Shown piece by piece: positions 4,258 through 23,484 of a stretch of DNA of 23,827 bases (the first letter of the stretch is position 1; each line of letters begins with the position of its first letter). The position numbers and the translations under genes were made by a program. This DNA comes from a virus, in IMG/VR virus record IMGVR_UViG_3300034279_000688, positions 1 through 23,827 of that record. One strand, 5' to 3'. The notes beneath the pieces were generated by a model, which was not told the DNA's origin, searched no databases, and was given only the letters and a program-made list of their open reading frames with translations.

Positions 4258-4833
4258 ATGAAAAAAGATAAAAAATTTTTAATAGGATTGCTCGCAAGTC
4301 TTGGATTGTCTTCAGTATTCTTGAATATTTCTAATGCTCAAGGTGTTGAAACTAACCTGAAAAACGATAAATATGCAACATTTACCGCTGAGGCGGTTTT
4401 TTTGCTTTCTAGGCCAGATCATCTAGATAAACCATCTAGAGACAATGTAAGAATTCTTGCTGAATATCAGGATAAAGGACAACTTACTGATATTGAACTA
4501 AAAACTTTGCTGTCTGCTTGTGGTTTTGAAAATAAACACCTGGTAGAGGCTTGGGCTATTGCTAAAAAAGAATCAATGGGCAACGCCTTGGCTTTTAACG
4601 GCAACAGAAGCACTGGAGACAAATCATACGGACTATTTCAAATAAATATGATTGGTGACCTTAATGCTGATAGAAAAGAAAAATATAACTTAGACTACAC
4701 TAGTCAACTTTTAAACCCATCAATTAACTGTCAAGTTGCTTATATTATGAGTGATGGTGGAAATAATTGGGGACCTTGGAAAGGCATAACTTCAAAAACT
4801 AGAGAATTTATGTATCAGTTTCCTAAAGATTAA
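4258..4833 (+). CDS. Secreted lytic transglycosylase/lysozyme-like protein
   Basis: 191 residues. The N-terminus has a signal peptide: MKKDKK, a hydrophobic stretch at about 7-22, and a possible cleavage after NISNAQ. The C-terminal half matches a lysozyme-fold SLT domain: AWAIAKKES with candidate catalytic Glu105, then SYGLFQINM (about 123-131), LNPSINCQVAYIM and NNWGPW (169-174). It probably cuts peptidoglycan outside the membrane, as endolysin or entry enzyme. It is the only plus-strand gene inside the leftward tail block, with its own promoter and ribosome site (aggaga). Its stop overlaps the convergent stop of the Hint gene. Confidence 0.82.
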   Translation: MKKDKKFLIGLLASLGLSSVFLNISNAQGVETNLKNDKYATFTAEAVFLLSRPDHLDKPSRDNVRILAEYQDKGQLTDIELKTLLSACGFENKHLVEAWAIAKKESMGNALAFNGNRSTGDKSYGLFQINMIGDLNADRKEKYNLDYTSQLLNPSINCQVAYIMSDGGNNWGPWKGITSKTREFMYQFPKD

Positions 4834-5726
4834 TCTACTGGATAAGCATTATATACAAGTAAAGAATCTGCTACAATCAAGCCAAATGGTTCTCTCATAA
4901 AATCATAAACTTTTCTATCTTCTTTGACTATTTCTATAGAGCGAACTTGATATAAAGGTCCATCAATCAATGACTCTTCTGGATTTTTTACTATTAAATC
5001 TCCAGATTTTAATTGTGAAGAAATAACAAACATTAGTTTATTTTCTCTAACAACAAGAATATCTTCTTGTGTAGAAAATCTCTTATACTTGTCTCCATTA
5101 ACTAAAACTGTATCAGATACTTCACTTTCTTTTATATTATTTACCACAGACTCTACTGTAGTGTATTCTTTATTATTTTCAGATGACCATAGTCTTAAAC
5201 CATCATGATTTGTTATTGGAATATCTTTAAATGTTTTAGTTATTAAAATATCTCCAACAACTATGTCTTTGGCTAATGCATATCCCTCTTTAGTTAAAAC
5301 TGGTGTTTCTTGATCTATACAAAGACCACCAAAATAGGTTGGTGAAAATCCAAATACTCTAAATGGTGAAAAACCAAATACGTTAAAGGGGGAAAACCCA
5401 AATACGTTAAAAGGAGAAAATCCAAATACTTGAAATGGAGAAAATCCAAACACCCCAAATGGTGTAAATGTAAATTGTCTAACTGTTAAATCAACTGGGG
5501 TTTCATAGTCTGCTGGTGTTGTTACTGCAGGAGTTTGTCCAACAACTTTTCCATCATTTGCAAGTTCTGTTGGTTCTCCAGAAACTGAAGTAATTACGTT
5601 TCCTAAAGTAAATCCTTCTGATACAACATCTGTTTGGGCTTGTGCACTTGTTCTTCCAATAAAATTAGGAAGTAGTTTCATTCCTTTTGCTACAACGTAT
5701 TTAACTAGTTTTCCAAATAATGCCAT
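4830..5726 (-). CDS. PASTA-like / octapeptide-repeat / Hint (intein-type) protein
   Basis: 298 residues in three parts. Residues 18-82 look like one PASTA domain (LPNFIGRTSAQAQ, then VVGQTPAV and PVDLTV). Residues 88-129 carry tandem octapeptides of the type GFSPFNVF. Residues 136-293 look like a Hint domain: C136 opens block A (CIDQETPVLTKEGY), SGDLIV resembles the end of block B, and VYDFMREPFGLIVADSLLVYN is a block F/G-like end with Asn293, followed by only AYPVD. The usual block-B His appears replaced by Asp222 and the penultimate His by Tyr292. Self-processing is therefore doubtful, or limited to the N-terminal junction. Ribosome site aggggt. Confidence 0.75.
   Translation of the reverse strand: MALFGKLVKYVVAKGMKLLPNFIGRTSAQAQTDVVSEGFTLGNVITSVSGEPTELANDGKVVGQTPAVTTPADYETPVDLTVRQFTFTPFGVFGFSPFQVFGFSPFNVFGFSPFNVFGFSPFRVFGFSPTYFGGLCIDQETPVLTKEGYALAKDIVVGDILITKTFKDIPITNHDGLRLWSSENNKEYTTVESVVNNIKESEVSDTVLVNGDKYKRFSTQEDILVVRENKLMFVISSQLKSGDLIVKNPEESLIDGPLYQVRSIEIVKEDRKVYDFMREPFGLIVADSLLVYNAYPVD
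5340..5465 (-). repeat. Tandem 24-bp repeats encoding GFSPFxVF
   Basis: About five in-frame 24-base units encode FTPFGVF, then GFSPFQVF, GFSPFNVF twice, GFSPFRVF and GFSP. Only the seventh codon of the unit varies strongly (G, Q, N, R). The array joins the PASTA-like domain to the Hint domain. Confidence 0.9.
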
Positions 5727-5735
5727 AGCAAACCC

Positions 5736-6386
5736 CTATGCGATCAAGTCGCCGACTAGAAGCCAGGTATTTGTATCAAACTTAAACAAGGATGCACCTG
5801 AGTACCTTGCTGCAATTGCTTTATTTGTATTTTTACTATTTAAAGTAACTCCTGCACCTGCAACAAATGTAACAGATCCAGTGTTCATTCTAAAAACATC
5901 TATTTCTGATCCTATTGGAAAGGCAATACTTGAATTGGGTGGAATAGTTACTGTCCATGCTCCTGTGGAATCAAAAGTTATACTTTGACCAATATCATTT
6001 AATGTTAAATCATAATTTTGTGTTCCGCTACCAGCCTGTTTATTAAAGGTAACTAAACCACCGTAAGATATCCAATTTGTTCCGTTGTAAAATTGTAAAT
6101 CATTAATTGCTACGGCACCAGAGGTTTGTCTAACAAAACAAACTGTTCCTCTTACTGGTGAGGTTAATGCTGCATCTCTTGCTGCAGGATTTAAAAAGTT
6201 ATTTACTCCAGCCTTAGCAGTAATTACTGCATTAGTATCTGAAAATGTAACATTGTTTTGAAATTCTTGTGTTCCAGACCAAACATAATTTGCGGCAGTG
6301 TTTGTGTTTGCACCAATTGCATAAAAAGTATCTGTACCTTGATCATATACGTATGCTGTTTTACCAGTAGTATTTAATGATGGCAT
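5736..6386 (-). CDS. Phage fibre-type structural protein
   Basis: 216 residues, Thr/Asn/Gly-rich, beta-structured. It has LQFYNGTNWISYGG near the middle, a motif common in phage fibre proteins, then QSITFDSTGAWTVTIPPNSS and a final repeat-poor domain ending TWLLVGDLIA. Its ATG overlaps the stop of the upstream 32-residue gene (TAATG). It is probably a fibre or fibre tip; the ligand is unknown. Confidence 0.7.
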   Translation of the reverse strand: MPSLNTTGKTAYVYDQGTDTFYAIGANTNTAANYVWSGTQEFQNNVTFSDTNAVITAKAGVNNFLNPAARDAALTSPVRGTVCFVRQTSGAVAINDLQFYNGTNWISYGGLVTFNKQAGSGTQNYDLTLNDIGQSITFDSTGAWTVTIPPNSSIAFPIGSEIDVFRMNTGSVTFVAGAGVTLNSKNTNKAIAARYSGASLFKFDTNTWLLVGDLIA

Positions 6387-6484
6387 TATGCACCAATCCC
6401 TATTGCTTTAAGTTCTTCTTCTGTTAAACCTAATGCAACTAGTTTTGCAATTGCTATTTCTTTTAAAATTATGTTATCAGTCAT
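6386..6484 (-). CDS. 32-residue microprotein in the tail operon
   Basis: The sequence runs MTDNIILKEIAIAKLVALGL followed by TEEELKAIGIGA. It is helical, and the LTEEELKAIGI ending recalls short tail-associated proteins such as XkdX, though the match is weak. Both ends are TAATG overlaps: its start with the stop of 6484-6930, and its stop with the start of 5736-6386. That double coupling is the main evidence that it is translated. Confidence 0.7.
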   Translation of the reverse strand: MTDNIILKEIAIAKLVALGLTEEELKAIGIGA

Positions 6485-6930
6485 TATTCACCTATTGTAT
6501 CCCAATCAGAAGTTGCTGAATTATAAATTTTCATTTCAAGTGGACTAGATCCTTTTACAACCCAAAGAGTTCCATCTGTTGGTGTTGCTGGTTCTATTGC
6601 TGTGTAAATTGCTGTTGGGTTTACTGGTGTAGTTCCTGGTGTTGAGTCAATATCTAACCAAAGTAAACCTTCTGCAAGAGCATTTGCATCTGGTTGTGTG
6701 GACTGAACAACTGAACCTGTTCCTAAATTTTGTAATACAGTTATTGAGTTTTGAATATTTTGTAAATGATAGGCAATTGATGGGTTAACTAGTGCTGCTG
6801 TATTGGCATTTGTTTCGTCATATGTGCTTGAGCCGTAATGGTATGTTCTTAGGGCAGACTGAATATCTGCGGCATCTTCATAACCTGGAACTTTAGTGGA
6901 ATATATATTTCCTATGCTAACATCAGCCAT
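6484..6930 (-). CDS. Tail/fibre-region structural protein
   Basis: 148 residues. The N-terminus includes GYEDAADIQSALRTYHYGSS and a helical YHLQNIQNSITVLQ, followed by a Thr/Pro-rich linker and a short end domain (GTLWVVKGSSPLEMKIYNSA). The last part resembles the WVxxxxxxxKIYNSxxxxW motif of phage fibre proteins. A clear ribosome site (aggaaggtga) lies upstream. Function beyond fibre assembly is unknown. Confidence 0.68.
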   Translation of the reverse strand: MADVSIGNIYSTKVPGYEDAADIQSALRTYHYGSSTYDETNANTAALVNPSIAYHLQNIQNSITVLQNLGTGSVVQSTQPDANALAEGLLWLDIDSTPGTTPVNPTAIYTAIEPATPTDGTLWVVKGSSPLEMKIYNSATSDWDTIGE

Positions 6931-6948: not shown

Positions 6949-7533
6949 TTATACCACGATAGATATTACAAAATGAACTGTTTTTACGCCAGTTAAATCT
7001 TGCCAGGTAGAACTAGCATACTCAATAGCATTAACTGTTACTGGAATTACCTGTATTCCAGTTCCTGGATCGTTTGTAAAAGAGCCTATTTCTATAGAAG
7101 ATGCTATTGGGTTTTCGTTTGGAATACTGTAAGTGATATTAAAATTTGCACTAGTTAAGGTTTGAGATGTTTCTTCGTCAACAATATAATTTACAGGAAT
7201 ATTAAAAACTTTAGATCCATCAACAAATGTTCCAGTCATTATTTTATTGTATTGAAGTGGGTTTAGTTTAATTATTGGGTACCATTGAAATCCAGGACCA
7301 CCATCAGAATTGTACTGATAAACATATGAATATTCGTTATCTGTTTTTAAAACATTAACACAAAGGTCTTTTGCTTTTGGGGTTTGGCCAACAAGTGCTG
7401 TATTTGGATTGCCTACTGAAACATAAAATAAACTTCCACGTTCACCTTCAGGTCCAAAGTCAACTTCTACGTTTATACTACTTGGTCCGCTTAATACTAA
7501 CAGTTCGTCGGTGGTTAATACTACGTCAGCCAT
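6949..7533 (-). CDS. Tail/fibre-region structural protein
   Basis: 194 residues, beta-rich, no catalytic motif. FGPEGERGSLFYVSVGNPN near residues 27-45 is a segment often seen in phage tail-tip or fibre proteins. The C-terminal half has repeated beta strands. Its start overlaps the upstream stop as TAATG, coupling it to the baseplate-like protein 7533-7886. Confidence 0.68.
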   Translation of the reverse strand: MADVVLTTDELLVLSGPSSINVEVDFGPEGERGSLFYVSVGNPNTALVGQTPKAKDLCVNVLKTDNEYSYVYQYNSDGGPGFQWYPIIKLNPLQYNKIMTGTFVDGSKVFNIPVNYIVDEETSQTLTSANFNITYSIPNENPIASSIEIGSFTNDPGTGIQVIPVTVNAIEYASSTWQDLTGVKTVHFVISIVV

Positions 7534-7886
7534 TATGCACCAGTTACATCTGCTGTTACAGTGATTGTTCCTTTTAGAAGTGTGTAAACTACATCTGTTC
7601 CACTTGATATTTGAACATCGTAATAGTATATGGTTCCTGCATCTAGATTATCTTTACCCACTTCTGGTAATATTACACAAGTAACTCTATCTTTAGCGTT
7701 GTTAATGACCGCACTTGCTGCAAATGGGCCTTCCTCTGGATCTGGTCCAGTTGAAGATGCTATAGAAAAAGCAGAATTATATCCATCTAAATCAAAAACG
7801 TCGCCTGCAGCGTCTTTAGGGTATATAACAAATTCATAACGGTCACCCTTGTAATAATTAATGTTGTATGTGCCTGGAAATGCCAT
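7533..7886 (-). CDS. Baseplate-type beta-domain protein, second copy
   Basis: 117 residues: YKGDRYEFVIYPKDAAGDVF, then LDGYNSAFSIAS, a strand block, GTIYYYDVQIS and LLKGTITVTADVTG. The order of elements matches 3154-3561 and 8752-9126. The ribosome site ggaggg is close to the ATG, and TATAAT lies 15 bases upstream (7902-7907), so a very short leader starting at the ribosome site is possible. Confidence 0.65.
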   Translation of the reverse strand: MAFPGTYNINYYKGDRYEFVIYPKDAAGDVFDLDGYNSAFSIASSTGPDPEEGPFAASAVINNAKDRVTCVILPEVGKDNLDAGTIYYYDVQISSGTDVVYTLLKGTITVTADVTGA

Positions 7887-10016: not shown

Positions 10017-10664
10017 ATGATTAAGTGGCCAGATAAAGATAAGCCTTATTTTGATTTGAAGCCAGTTGTTATACCCGATTTTTTTACGCCATCAGAATAT
10101 GAAGATGTGTATAAAACAATTGAGGAAAGCAGAAAAAGTCCATTTAGTAAAGTACAAGTAAATGAACCTATGGGTTATCTTGCTGAAAATGTTTATGTCA
10201 AAGAACCTTTACTGGAAGTTATGATAAACCAAATCAACAAGCATTACAAAATAGAACAAACAGATCCAGAAAAATGTTCTTTTATATTTAATCGTTACAC
10301 TTGGAAAACTGGACATCCACCAACTTTAAAACCACACTTTGATATGATAGAAAATTTTGGATTGATCACATTAACTATTATTTTAAGTACATCACTTAAA
10401 TGGAACATCATTGTTGAAGATGAAGAATTTGAAATTGAACCAAACCAAGCATTGTTGTTCGCTGGAACACACCAAATACATTGGAGACCAAAAATAGAAT
10501 TTGCTCCTGAAGATCATTACGATTTTCTTCTTTGCCAATTTGCTAACGATCCTCCATTAATGTTGAATGATGACAAACATTGGGAAATGATGGTTTCTAA
10601 CAGAGCAGAAGCAAGTACAGATTGGTGGAGAAAATATGAGTCTGACGGCTTACCAAAACTTTAA
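10017..10664 (+). CDS. 2-oxoglutarate/Fe(II) dioxygenase-like protein 1
   Basis: 215 residues. Candidate iron ligands are H107-x-D109 (LKPHFDM) and H152 or H155 in GTHQIHWRP, with R157 a candidate 2-oxoglutarate contact. The core spans about residues 85-175 and resembles prolyl 4-hydroxylase-type jelly rolls. It begins right after the previous stop and overlaps the next gene by 29 bases. The two following genes are paralogues with the same landmarks. The substrate is unknown; protein hydroxylation is one possibility. Confidence 0.75.
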   Translation: MIKWPDKDKPYFDLKPVVIPDFFTPSEYEDVYKTIEESRKSPFSKVQVNEPMGYLAENVYVKEPLLEVMINQINKHYKIEQTDPEKCSFIFNRYTWKTGHPPTLKPHFDMIENFGLITLTIILSTSLKWNIIVEDEEFEIEPNQALLFAGTHQIHWRPKIEFAPEDHYDFLLCQFANDPPLMLNDDKHWEMMVSNRAEASTDWWRKYESDGLPKL

Positions 10665-11283
10665 ACCAAAATTAATCACAAACCTTTTCACTGAAGAGGA
10701 ATACGCAAACCTTTATAACCAAGTAGCAGTGTTTAATAAAAGACCAGAATATGTTAGAGTTATCGACGAATTAGGATACACCTCAACTTCGCTTTTCCTT
10801 AACGAAACAATTAAAAACGTTTTGTGGAAAAAAATAGGGACAGATTTAGGAATAAAAACAAAAGAAGTTTTAACTCACTACGCCAGATACTCTTTACAGT
10901 CAGGTCACAAACCTTTACTTATGCCACATTATGATAGAGGCTTAACCGATGCTAGGTTCTCTCTTGCTATAGTGTTAGATAGTACCTTTGATTGGGATAT
11001 ATATGTTGAGGGTGAGAAATTTATACCCCGCAAAAATGATGCAGTGTTATTCTCAGGATCCCACCAAGTCCATTGGAGACCAGACGTTGAATTTAAAGAA
11101 GACGACTACTATGATATTATGGTGTGTCAATTTGAAGAAGACACCGAAGAAAACCTAACGCTTACCAAAAAACACAAAGAAATTATGGATGAAAGAAACG
11201 GACAATGGTGCCTACAATGGGAAAAATTATACGATATAGAAACATACAATAAAAAAATGAACTATAATGGAACAGAGGAATAG
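10636..11283 (+). CDS. 2-oxoglutarate/Fe(II) dioxygenase-like protein 2
   Basis: 215 residues. It has LMPHYDR (H98, D100), FDWDIYVEGE, then SGSHQVHWRPD (H143/H146, R148), in the same order as the first paralogue. The start lies inside the upstream gene with a strong ribosome site (ggtggag) six bases ahead, so translation is coupled. Sequence divergence outside the active site is high, suggesting different substrates or old duplication. Confidence 0.75.
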   Translation: MSLTAYQNFKPKLITNLFTEEEYANLYNQVAVFNKRPEYVRVIDELGYTSTSLFLNETIKNVLWKKIGTDLGIKTKEVLTHYARYSLQSGHKPLLMPHYDRGLTDARFSLAIVLDSTFDWDIYVEGEKFIPRKNDAVLFSGSHQVHWRPDVEFKEDDYYDIMVCQFEEDTEENLTLTKKHKEIMDERNGQWCLQWEKLYDIETYNKKMNYNGTEE

Positions 11284-11290
11284 GATAAAT

Positions 11291-12025
11291 ATGTCAAAAG
11301 TAACAGAGATAGCAAAAGAACCATTAGAACCAAAATGGAAGGCACATCACATTGAACCTGCCAAACCAGATCATTATTTAGAACCAAGTTTTTTTACTGC
11401 TGAAGAATATGGTCAAATCTATGACGTTGTTGTAAAAACCATGCAAAGAGGATTAGACGAAGCAGGAGACAAGTGGGCTTTCTTCCTTAAGATTTCTAAT
11501 AACGGATTTTATATTTTAAATGAAGATGAAGAAGGAAAAGTTAGATACCCTGAAGCAATTAAAAATAAAATTAAATCTAGAATGGAAACACTAATGGGTG
11601 AACCAGTTCGTGACCCAGGAGTATTCTTTGCAAGATACACCAACGAGGCTGGAATGCCAAGTCTAATGCCACATTGCGACAAACATCACGACAGAATGCA
11701 CGTAACAAACACAATTCAACTAAACAAAACAGTTGATTGGGATTTTTACGTAGAAGACACACTATACGAAACTGATGTTAACGATGCTGTATGGTTCTCA
11801 GGATCACATCACGTACACTTTAGACCAGACTCAAACTTTAAAGATGGAGACTACTACGATATATTCTTAGTATCATCTCAAAGAATTGCTGATGAAAAAA
11901 ATCCATTAGATAAAGAATGGTTCGCTACTCAAGAAAACTTATGTGGATATTTTGCTAACATGAGATACAAAGATGTATTTGAAAAAACTTTAAAGAAACA
12001 ATACGAAGTAGACGGTTGTCAATAA
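11291..12025 (+). CDS. 2-oxoglutarate/Fe(II) dioxygenase-like protein 3
   Basis: 244 residues from the ATG at 11291, chosen because aggaatagga lies just upstream; an in-frame ATG at 11267 would overlap the previous gene. Landmarks are LMPHCDK (H128, D130), VDWDFYVED and SGSHHVHFRPD (H173/H176, R178). An extra ~30 N-terminal residues and an insertion near residues 55-85 distinguish it. It is closest to paralogue 2 in the SGSHxVHxRPD block. Confidence 0.75.
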   Translation: MSKVTEIAKEPLEPKWKAHHIEPAKPDHYLEPSFFTAEEYGQIYDVVVKTMQRGLDEAGDKWAFFLKISNNGFYILNEDEEGKVRYPEAIKNKIKSRMETLMGEPVRDPGVFFARYTNEAGMPSLMPHCDKHHDRMHVTNTIQLNKTVDWDFYVEDTLYETDVNDAVWFSGSHHVHFRPDSNFKDGDYYDIFLVSSQRIADEKNPLDKEWFATQENLCGYFANMRYKDVFEKTLKKQYEVDGCQ

Positions 12026-12166: not shown

Positions 12167-12979
12167 TTATTGCTTTATGTCGTAAACTGTTGGGTTAGCC
12201 TTTTTGTTAACTATAACTTGATCCATATACGCGTTCCATTTTTCTACAAAACCTTTATCTTTAATAGCCTCAGACCATTCTTTAATAAACTCTAACTCAT
12301 CATCTAACGTTATCTTATGTTGTTTCTTAATACCAGAACGATTAATCTTGATAGTGGTAGAAAACCTTGAACCCTTTGCCTTAAAATCTTTTACCTTCAC
12401 AAACTTAAGCCACATATTATGATCAGTACCCAACGCATTAGGGGCAGCCGTCCAACCACCCACTCTATCAAATATTCTTTTATTGTGCATAACTCCAGTA
12501 AGTGATACAAAATTATAAGCCTTAAAATACATTGCGTCAACCTCGTTATCTAAAAATCTACCAAGATACTCTGCTTTAGTATCCTTTTGTTTAACCATAT
12601 ATGGAACAGGATTAACAAAATCATAACCCTGTATCTCCTCAAGCATCTTTTCTATATGATTAGGAATTAACAAATCATCATCCCCACAATACGTTATATA
12701 CTTAGGGTTAAAATCTTCTATTGGTTTATTTCTATGTACCTCGCCAGTTTTACCAGTAAGTTTAGTCTTCTTATTATCATAGAAAAAAACCCTATCATCT
12801 GAATCAACTATTTTCTGAATAATTTTTTTATAATCCTCACTGACACCATCTCCAGTGATTGCTAAGTTAAAATTTTTATATGACTGATTTAATATGCTAT
12901 CTATAGTATAACTAAAAGTATGATCTCTAGAATGAGTTGGTACTATAACCAGAACATCTTTATTTACAAGAGGATGCAT
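12167..12979 (-). CDS. Family 2 glycosyltransferase
   Basis: 270 residues from the ATG chosen (MHPLVNKDVLVIVPTHSRDH); in-frame starts up to 30 bases upstream are possible, but the GT-A domain needs only this much. DVLVIVPTHSR and SILNQSYKNFNLAITGDG form the nucleotide-binding start, YCGDDDLL near 98-104 is the DxD site, and GTDHNMW near 184-190 fits the acceptor-side acidic motif. It overlaps the epimerase gene by 20 bases, so the two likely work together on a sugar modification. The host or phage target is unknown. Confidence 0.82.
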   Translation of the reverse strand: MHPLVNKDVLVIVPTHSRDHTFSYTIDSILNQSYKNFNLAITGDGVSEDYKKIIQKIVDSDDRVFFYDNKKTKLTGKTGEVHRNKPIEDFNPKYITYCGDDDLLIPNHIEKMLEEIQGYDFVNPVPYMVKQKDTKAEYLGRFLDNEVDAMYFKAYNFVSLTGVMHNKRIFDRVGGWTAAPNALGTDHNMWLKFVKVKDFKAKGSRFSTTIKINRSGIKKQHKITLDDELEFIKEWSEAIKDKGFVEKWNAYMDQVIVNKKANPTVYDIKQ

Positions 12980-22932: not shown

Positions 22933-23484
22933 ATGACATGTATAGTAGGTATAGTAGATAATCTTTCTACCCCCCGCAAAGTCTATATGGCGGCGGATTC
23001 GGGGGCATCTGATGAAAGTATTATGATATCTATAATAGATCCTAAGATACAAAAGAATGGAAAATATCTTATAGGATATGCAGGAGAAACAGGATTAGGA
23101 CAATTATTACATAGTATTGATCTTCCAGATCCTTCTGGATATAATGGAAAAGAATTAACTAAATTTTTAAGAACAAAATTTTGTCAAGTATTTAAGAATG
23201 CTATAGGTATTTATTCTCCTTCTACTTCCCCCGCCGATGACAAGGACGGCGGCATCCTGGCCCTCATCGCCGTGCGTGGGCGACTGTTCGAATTCGACTC
23301 ATCAGACTTCCAACTCAACGAGATCACTGAAGGAGCCATTGGATCTGGCGGCACAATAGCCTTCGGCTCTTTGTACACAACCAGGGGGTATAAAGATATA
23401 AATAGAAGATTAAAAATAGCGGTAGAATCAGCAATAGAATATAGTCCTTCATGTAAAGGACCTATCTATTTTGACTCAATATAA
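22933..23484 (+). CDS. Proteasome-beta/HslV-like Ntn-hydrolase family protein
   Basis: 183 residues. After Met, the order TCIVGIVDN, KVYMAADSG, DPKIQKNGKYLIGYAGE follows proteasome-beta/HslV subunits: candidate nucleophile Thr2, Asp22 and Lys38, then the glycine turn at G48-G51. C-terminal helix RRLKIAVESAIEYSP fits the family. Processing by Met removal would expose Thr2. It could be a phage peptidase or a non-catalytic relative; the substrate is unknown. The middle (about 23222-23390) is much GC-richer than the ends. Ribosome site aggga. Confidence 0.72.
   Translation: MTCIVGIVDNLSTPRKVYMAADSGASDESIMISIIDPKIQKNGKYLIGYAGETGLGQLLHSIDLPDPSGYNGKELTKFLRTKFCQVFKNAIGIYSPSTSPADDKDGGILALIAVRGRLFEFDSSDFQLNEITEGAIGSGGTIAFGSLYTTRGYKDINRRLKIAVESAIEYSPSCKGPIYFDSI

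What the first reader, a model, noticed from the sequence alone, without database searches (positions are those of the whole stretch)
4830..5726. PASTA + GFSPFNVF octapeptide array + degenerate Hint domain in one tail-region protein
The combination is unusual. A short PASTA-like cell-wall-binding domain is followed by about five near-identical octapeptides, and then an intein-type Hint domain. Cys136 and the terminal Asn293 are kept, but the block-B His appears to be Asp222 and the penultimate His Tyr292, with only AYPVD after the Asn. It may cleave or attach the N-terminal part by thioester chemistry, rather than splice.
Basis: partly seen in the sequence, partly recalled or inferred. Interest (0 to 1): 0.7.

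Follow-up and report, generated by a model that had tools for sequence, protein, structure and literature searches.

The report
Swappable intein-like caps on phage fibres
A freshwater phage protein, coded right after a tail-fibre gene, carries at its end an intein-like (self-cutting type) domain that has lost most of its splicing machinery; in related phages this end is freely exchanged for small cysteine-rich ends or none, and the two such proteins of one phage usually carry matching ends, which suggests a swappable fibre-tip part.

Summary
The 298-aa protein (5726-4830, minus strand) is as described: PASTA domain, five VFGFSPF octapeptides, C-terminal Hint domain. AlphaFold (pLDDT 94) and Foldseek match Hedgehog and bacterial-intein-like domains. 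Two corrections: the block-B His position is Glu221, not Asp222, and Asn293 is not conserved (N/G/H). The domain cannot splice: no block-B His, no His-Asn, no +1 nucleophile. Position 1 is nevertheless Cys or Ser in 60 of 60 relatives. Block-B-Glu relatives mostly have a bulky residue before Cys1, a substitution known to rescue the N-S acyl shift without the His. So one-sided cleavage or transfer at Cys136 remains plausible but unproven. The larger finding is the context. Every such gene checked directly follows a tail-fibre gene with one conserved C-terminal knob. That slot holds PASTA or FN3 domains, an aromatic repeat array, then a Hint domain, a Cys-rich tail or nothing. Where two such units lie on one contig, cap class matches in 22 of 27 pairs. 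The Hint segment is a divergence island (about 50-60% DNA identity inside 90-100% flanks). I read it as an exchangeable fibre-tip cap derived from an autoprocessing domain. No paper describing this was found in the library searched.

The parts
4830..5726 (-). whole gene: tail-fibre-tip protein with PASTA N-terminus, aromatic octapeptide array and C-terminal Hint domain (298 aa plus stop)
5481..5672 (-). PASTA domain, residues 19-82 (sister protein in the same phages has FN3 domains here)
   Evidence: Pfam PF03793 above cut-off; fold in full-length model; FN3 in the paralogue
5334..5474 (-). aromatic array, residues 85-131: FTFTPFG then five VFGFSPF(X) octapeptides; no confident monomer fold
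   Evidence: pLDDT about 30-34 over residues 91-130; very low dN/dS with high dS
4833..5321 (-). Hint (Hedgehog/intein) domain, residues 136-298; exchangeable C-terminal cap
5319..5321 (-). Cys136 = Hint position 1 (Cys or Ser in 60 of 60 relatives); preceded by bulky Leu135
5064..5075 (-). degenerate block B: S218-T-Q-E221 in place of TxxH
4848..4853 (-). degenerate block G: Y292-N293 in place of His-Asn, followed only by AYPVD
5736..6386 (-). directly upstream tail-fibre gene; its C-terminal about 80 residues are the 'knob' that precedes the proteins of this slot
   Evidence: phrog_21510 and phrog_8780 matches; upstream of all checked relatives; cultured-phage homologues

Best explanation
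This is a virion tail-fibre-tip protein made after, and probably attached to, the knob-ended fibre encoded just upstream. It has three modules: an N-terminal anchor (PASTA here, FN3 in the sister protein), an aromatic octapeptide stalk, and an exchangeable C-terminal cap, here a Hint domain descended from an autoprocessing, bacterial-intein-like (BIL) domain. In the window's clade the C-terminal half of the chemistry is lost, so it does not splice. The most likely remaining activity is the first step only: the peptide bond before Cys136 shifts onto the Cys thiol, and the thioester is then hydrolysed or attacked by another nucleophile, which removes the cap from the PASTA-stalk part or joins that part to something else. 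Shown here: fold, domain order, gene order, cap exchange, matched caps between the two units, motif losses and retention of the nucleophile. Inferred: presence in the virion, tip position, receptor-related role, and any cleavage.
For: Fold: pLDDT 94, Hedgehog and BIL best PDB matches. Slot: every relative for which upstream DNA could be read (all but one) directly follows a knob-ended fibre gene, gap -1 to 31 nt; in cultured phages the gene after the knob codes for other exposed-type proteins, such as a Gly-rich protein annotated lectin-like in Marchewka and a repeat protein that reads like a beta-propeller in DSL-LC01. Exchange: fetched by knob and so without Hint bias, 51 unique FN3-type slot proteins carry Hint 18, Cys-rich tail 14, other/bare 19; 53 unique proteins of the second search carry Hint 25, Cys-rich 12, other 16. 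Matching: cap class agrees in 22 of 27 within-phage pairs, array type in 19 of 27. Island: Hint DNA 49-62% identical to L020 and L016 inside flanks mostly 90-100%. Chemistry: position 1 Cys 54, Ser 6 of 60; Ser1 always with block-B His; block-B Glu goes with a bulky -1 residue in 26 of 31 against 2 of 17 with His, and steric bulk at -1 rescues the N-S acyl shift without that His (PMC6333167). Some Hint-less homologues end just where such cleavage would end the chain. dN/dS in the Hint part below 1.
Against: Block-B His, block-F His/Asp and block-G His-Asn are all absent in this clade, so activity may be gone. Cys136 is one of 20 invariant columns of 163 in the clade, not uniquely kept. The -1 association rests on few independent events; the tree-based test could not reach significance. 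No mass spectrometry or virion data exist for this phage. Tip position is inferred from gene order only.
Confidence: 0.5

Rival explanations
1. Dead Hint: the domain is catalytically inert and kept as a folded, rapidly diversifying head that contacts the host surface or the partner fibre; Cys136 is structural.
For: All assisting residues lost in a 23-member clade; Hint segment is a divergence island exchanged like a receptor-binding cassette and replaced by small Cys-rich caps in relatives; isolated Nanopelagicales phages have a variable island over tail-fibre genes that the authors link to host recognition (PMC10202952).
Against: A nucleophile at position 1 in 60 of 60 and the bulky -1 residue in Glu-type Hints are not expected of an inert scaffold.
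Confidence: 0.35
2. Covalent attachment: the Cys136 thioester transfers the PASTA-stalk part onto an amine or hydroxyl of the fibre knob or of the host surface, fixing the tip or making adsorption irreversible.
For: Hedgehog precedent (attachment to cholesterol through the Cys1 thioester, established knowledge); the Hint lies at the very C-terminus, as in Hedgehog; fold closest to 1at0.
Against: No acceptor site or sterol-recognition-like segment was identified; hydrolysis would leave the same sequence signature.
Confidence: 0.08
3. Active splicing intein or polymorphic-toxin Hint that releases a C-terminal effector.
For: Hint fold; weak Pfam Intein_splicing and PT-HINT matches in relatives.
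Against: Only five residues (AYPVD) follow Asn293, no +1 nucleophile, no His-Asn, no block-B His, no downstream effector in the frame; the gene ends there, against a convergent lysozyme-like gene.
Confidence: 0.02
4. The cap exchange and matched pairs are assembly artefacts of repetitive metagenome contigs.
For: L049 joins the FN3-locus gene to PASTA-locus downstream DNA through an identical stretch shared with L016 and L047, which could be a chimera.
Against: The window protein is identical in 8 other contigs; cap classes differ across many records while gene order is constant; matching holds for caps homologous but far from identical, such as CPPSLYC against CPPSLWC, which chimeras would not produce.
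Confidence: 0.05

Closest known systems
Bacterial intein-like (BIL) domains, types A and B
   Same: Hint fold; Cys1; no +1 nucleophile; relatives with C-terminal His-Asn look like type A, the window's clade without block G looks like type B (definitions from PMC4031507)
   Different: Block-B His replaced by Glu; domain sits at the extreme C-terminus of a phage fibre-tip protein; no activity shown
Hedgehog C-terminal autoprocessing (Hog/Hint) domain, 1at0
   Same: Best Foldseek match; C-terminal Hint after a modular N-terminal part; only N-terminal chemistry needed
   Different: Block-B His is lost; no sterol-recognition region found; phage, not animal
Tail-fibre proteins with a C-terminal Hint in Erwinia and Dickeya jumbo phages, Yersinia fHe-Yen9-02, Alcaligenes Afa-NA1 and Phage NCTB
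   Same: Stalk repeats (collagen) followed by a C-terminal Hint and a short tail, beside tail-fibre genes
   Different: Fully canonical motifs (THEH, VHN); collagen stalk instead of the aromatic array; no PASTA; not shown to be in the knob-linked slot
Uncultured Caudovirales phage 'PASTA_pknB domain containing protein' A0A6J5NY54 and 'Fibronectin type III' A0A6J5NYB8
   Same: Same Hint structure in BFVD, 66% and 36% identity over the Hint; database entries of this family
   Different: Entries name only the N-terminal domain; no description of the Hint cap or of cap exchange was found

Membership tests
Hint fold superfamily | Hint beta-fold | tested here: met
   pLDDT 94.2; PDB matches to Hedgehog, BIL and intein structures, E down to 2.8e-6
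Hint fold superfamily | nucleophile at position 1 (block A) | tested here: met
   Cys136; Cys or Ser in 60 of 60 relatives
Class 1 intein | block-B Thr-x-x-His | tested here: not met
   S218-T-Q-E221
Class 1 intein | C-terminal His-Asn and +1 Cys/Ser/Thr followed by a C-extein | tested here: not met
   Y292-N293-A294-YPVD-stop
BIL type A | C-terminal His-Asn without +1 nucleophile | tested here: not met
   Not in the window's clade; present in relatives such as L059, L073, L152, L200
BIL type B | no block-G similarity | tested here: met
   His-Asn absent, though a block-G-like strand (LLVYN) is still recognisable
BIL type B | cleavage activity | not testable with these tools
   needs expressed protein
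Hedgehog autoprocessing domain | Cys1 plus TxxH | tested here: not met
   Cys1 present, His absent
Polymorphic-toxin PT-HINT | toxin domain after the Hint | tested here: not met
   five residues after Asn293
PASTA domain (PF03793) | Pfam gathering score | tested here: met
   23.6 bits against 23.2
Tail-fibre tip/adhesin | gene directly after a fibre gene, exchangeable head | tested here: met
Tail-fibre tip/adhesin | presence at the fibre tip and receptor binding | not testable with these tools
   needs virion proteomics, microscopy and adsorption assays

The most novel reading that the evidence does not exclude
Freshwater (probably actinobacterial) phages carry two tail-fibre tip proteins with matched, swappable C-terminal caps. 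One cap class is a Hint domain that has kept only the N-terminal half of intein chemistry, with the block-B His replaced by Glu plus steric strain from a bulky -1 residue, and uses it to shed the cap or to bond the tip covalently.
Probability: 0.25. Interest if true: 0.85.

Novelty: new variant of a known kind. Interest (0 to 1): 0.68.

Why it matters
If right, it adds self-cleaving or self-attaching chemistry to the known ways phages build and diversify fibre tips, and gives a natural series (Cys1+His+HN, then Cys1+Gln/Glu+HN, then Cys1+Glu only, and Ser1+His without HN) for asking which intein residues are dispensable. It also gives an annotation rule for a large set of uncharacterised freshwater phage genes.

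Tried and rejected
Sequence search of the full protein against the PDB gave coronavirus spike chains: a low-complexity match to the aromatic array, discarded. PHROGs, NCBIfam and INPHARED gave nothing useful for the protein itself. The genome-contig scan found no relative. T4-like capsid and portal models gave no match, but the control also rang nowhere, so this is uninformative. The register of L183 was first read as Asn1 and corrected to Ser1 on inspection. Splicing intein and toxin-release readings were rejected on sequence. 'PASTA means cell-wall binding' was not adopted, because the sister protein has FN3 domains in the same place. The full-length model gave no structure for the array. 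Attempts to make the -1/Glu association phylogenetically independent had too few pairs.

Full report
Observation. The protein is encoded on the minus strand, 5726 to 4830. It has a PASTA domain just above the Pfam cut-off, five octapeptides with a 24-bp period and a C-terminal domain that AlphaFold models as a Hint fold at pLDDT 94, closest in the PDB to the Hedgehog autoprocessing domain and to bacterial-intein-like domains. Cys136 is kept; Asn293 is not.

Relatives. IMG/VR holds 22 close relatives and many distant ones. They show a modular family: PASTA or FN3 domains, an array of short aromatic/proline repeats (VFGFSPFN, FFAPPG, YSFTP, FFPFFPP, GFTPF), then the C-terminal part. Some relatives have a fully canonical Hint (for example L200: Cys1, TAEH, THN then K; L152; L073; L059), many keep Cys1 and His-Asn but have Gln or Glu for the block-B His, a Ser1 group keeps the block-B His but has lost His-Asn, and the window's clade keeps Cys1 only. 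A tree of 60 Hints puts the window in a 23-row clade with the combined losses (SH-aLRT 92; long branches make deep joins unsure).

Gene order. Every relative whose upstream DNA could be read (all but one) directly follows a gene ending in the same C-terminal knob. The knob is widespread in cultured phages, mostly as 'minor tail protein', and the next gene there codes for other exposed-type proteins, including a Gly-rich protein annotated lectin-like and a repeat protein that reads like a beta-propeller (the propeller reading is mine, Pfam gave only a weak DUF6242 match). This places the window protein in a fibre-tip slot, by inference.

Exchange of caps. To avoid selecting on the Hint, I fetched loci by the knob alone. 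Of 51 unique FN3-type slot proteins, 18 end in a Hint, 14 in a Cys-rich tail and 19 otherwise, several stopping right after the array. Of 53 unique proteins in the second, PASTA-side search, 25 have a Hint, 12 a Cys-rich tail and 16 something else (at least one of these 16, L292, looks like a missed Hint). Where a record holds both units, the two proteins share the cap class in 22 of 27 and the array type in 19 of 27 (permutation p below 5e-5 for each, but the phages are related, so perhaps a dozen or so independent lineages). Often the caps are homologous, as in G023, G025, G032, G033 and G038. The window's own phage species has a second, FN3-type Hint protein about 8 kb further on, beyond the left end of the window. 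DNA identity between the window and close relatives falls from mostly 90-100% in the flanks to 49-62% (L020, L016) or 71-80% (L032, L037) in the Hint segment. L016 and L047 share an identical stretch of roughly 480-540 nt across the end of the array and the Hint, from the two different loci, so caps move between the two units, or the contigs are chimeric there.

Mechanism. The C-terminal reaction is excluded by the missing His-Asn. For the N-terminal reaction, position 1 is Cys (54) or Ser (6) in all 60; the Ser1 group always has the block-B His; block-B Glu Hints have a bulky -1 residue in 26 of 31 against 2 of 17 with His (Fisher p 1.4e-6, not corrected for kinship, and too few independent pairs for a tree-based test). 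Friedel et al. showed that bulk at -1 compensates for the missing block-B His in the N-S acyl shift of an intein (PMC6333167). This makes one-sided cleavage or transfer at Cys136 plausible, about even odds; a dead Hint kept as a variable head is the main rival. dN/dS of the Hint part is 0.1-0.7, so it is under constraint in the pairs compared. A caution: several of the Hint searches used patterns that include the Cys1 motif, so the unbiased evidence for the nucleophile is the knob-based and N-terminus-based sets and the profile search of whole records.

Host. WhiB, an actinobacterial marker, is present in two of the longer records, and isolated Nanopelagicales phages carry a hypervariable island over tail-fibre genes that its authors link to host recognition (PMC10202952). 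An actinobacterial host is likely but not shown for the window.

Novelty. Hint domains and BILs are known; C-terminal Hints in jumbo-phage tail proteins exist in databases, some annotated as intein domains; UniProt holds members of this family under their N-terminal domain names. I found no paper on a Hint as a fibre-tip cap, on cap exchange or on matched caps, within an open-access library only. Hence: new variant of a known kind.

Noticed in passing
window 6484-6930 and 7533-7886, minus strand: Two more neighbouring tail-region genes are divergence dips against L020 (about 74% and 62% in otherwise mostly 85-99% DNA).
   Followed up: no
window 4258-4833, plus strand: SLT_3/lysozyme-like gene, apparently with a signal peptide, convergent with the Hint gene and overlapping its stop by 4 bases.
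   Followed up: partly
L120 (G014 12314-12778), outside the window's left end: Second, FN3-type Hint protein of the window's own phage species, with a different C-terminus (YSSYALTQDYLGLPTT).
   Followed up: yes
L107 9480-9941 (Phage NCTB BN7874_135): Stand-alone 153-aa Hint-like ORF ending VHNKVD, directly after a collagen-Hint fibre gene.
   Followed up: partly
L064, L068, L069: YSFTP arrays interrupted by one or two copies of a Cys-containing unit of about 80 residues (GVWYTHCSNP...FFWANKTC...).
   Followed up: no
L049: Contig joining FN3-locus upstream DNA to PASTA-locus downstream DNA: recombinant or assembly chimera.
   Followed up: partly
window 22933-23484, plus strand: HslV-family peptidase-like gene (phrog_1040).
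   Followed up: no
window 10017-12025, plus strand: Three tandem ORFs resembling one another, possibly 2-oxoglutarate-oxygenase-like by eye.
   Followed up: no
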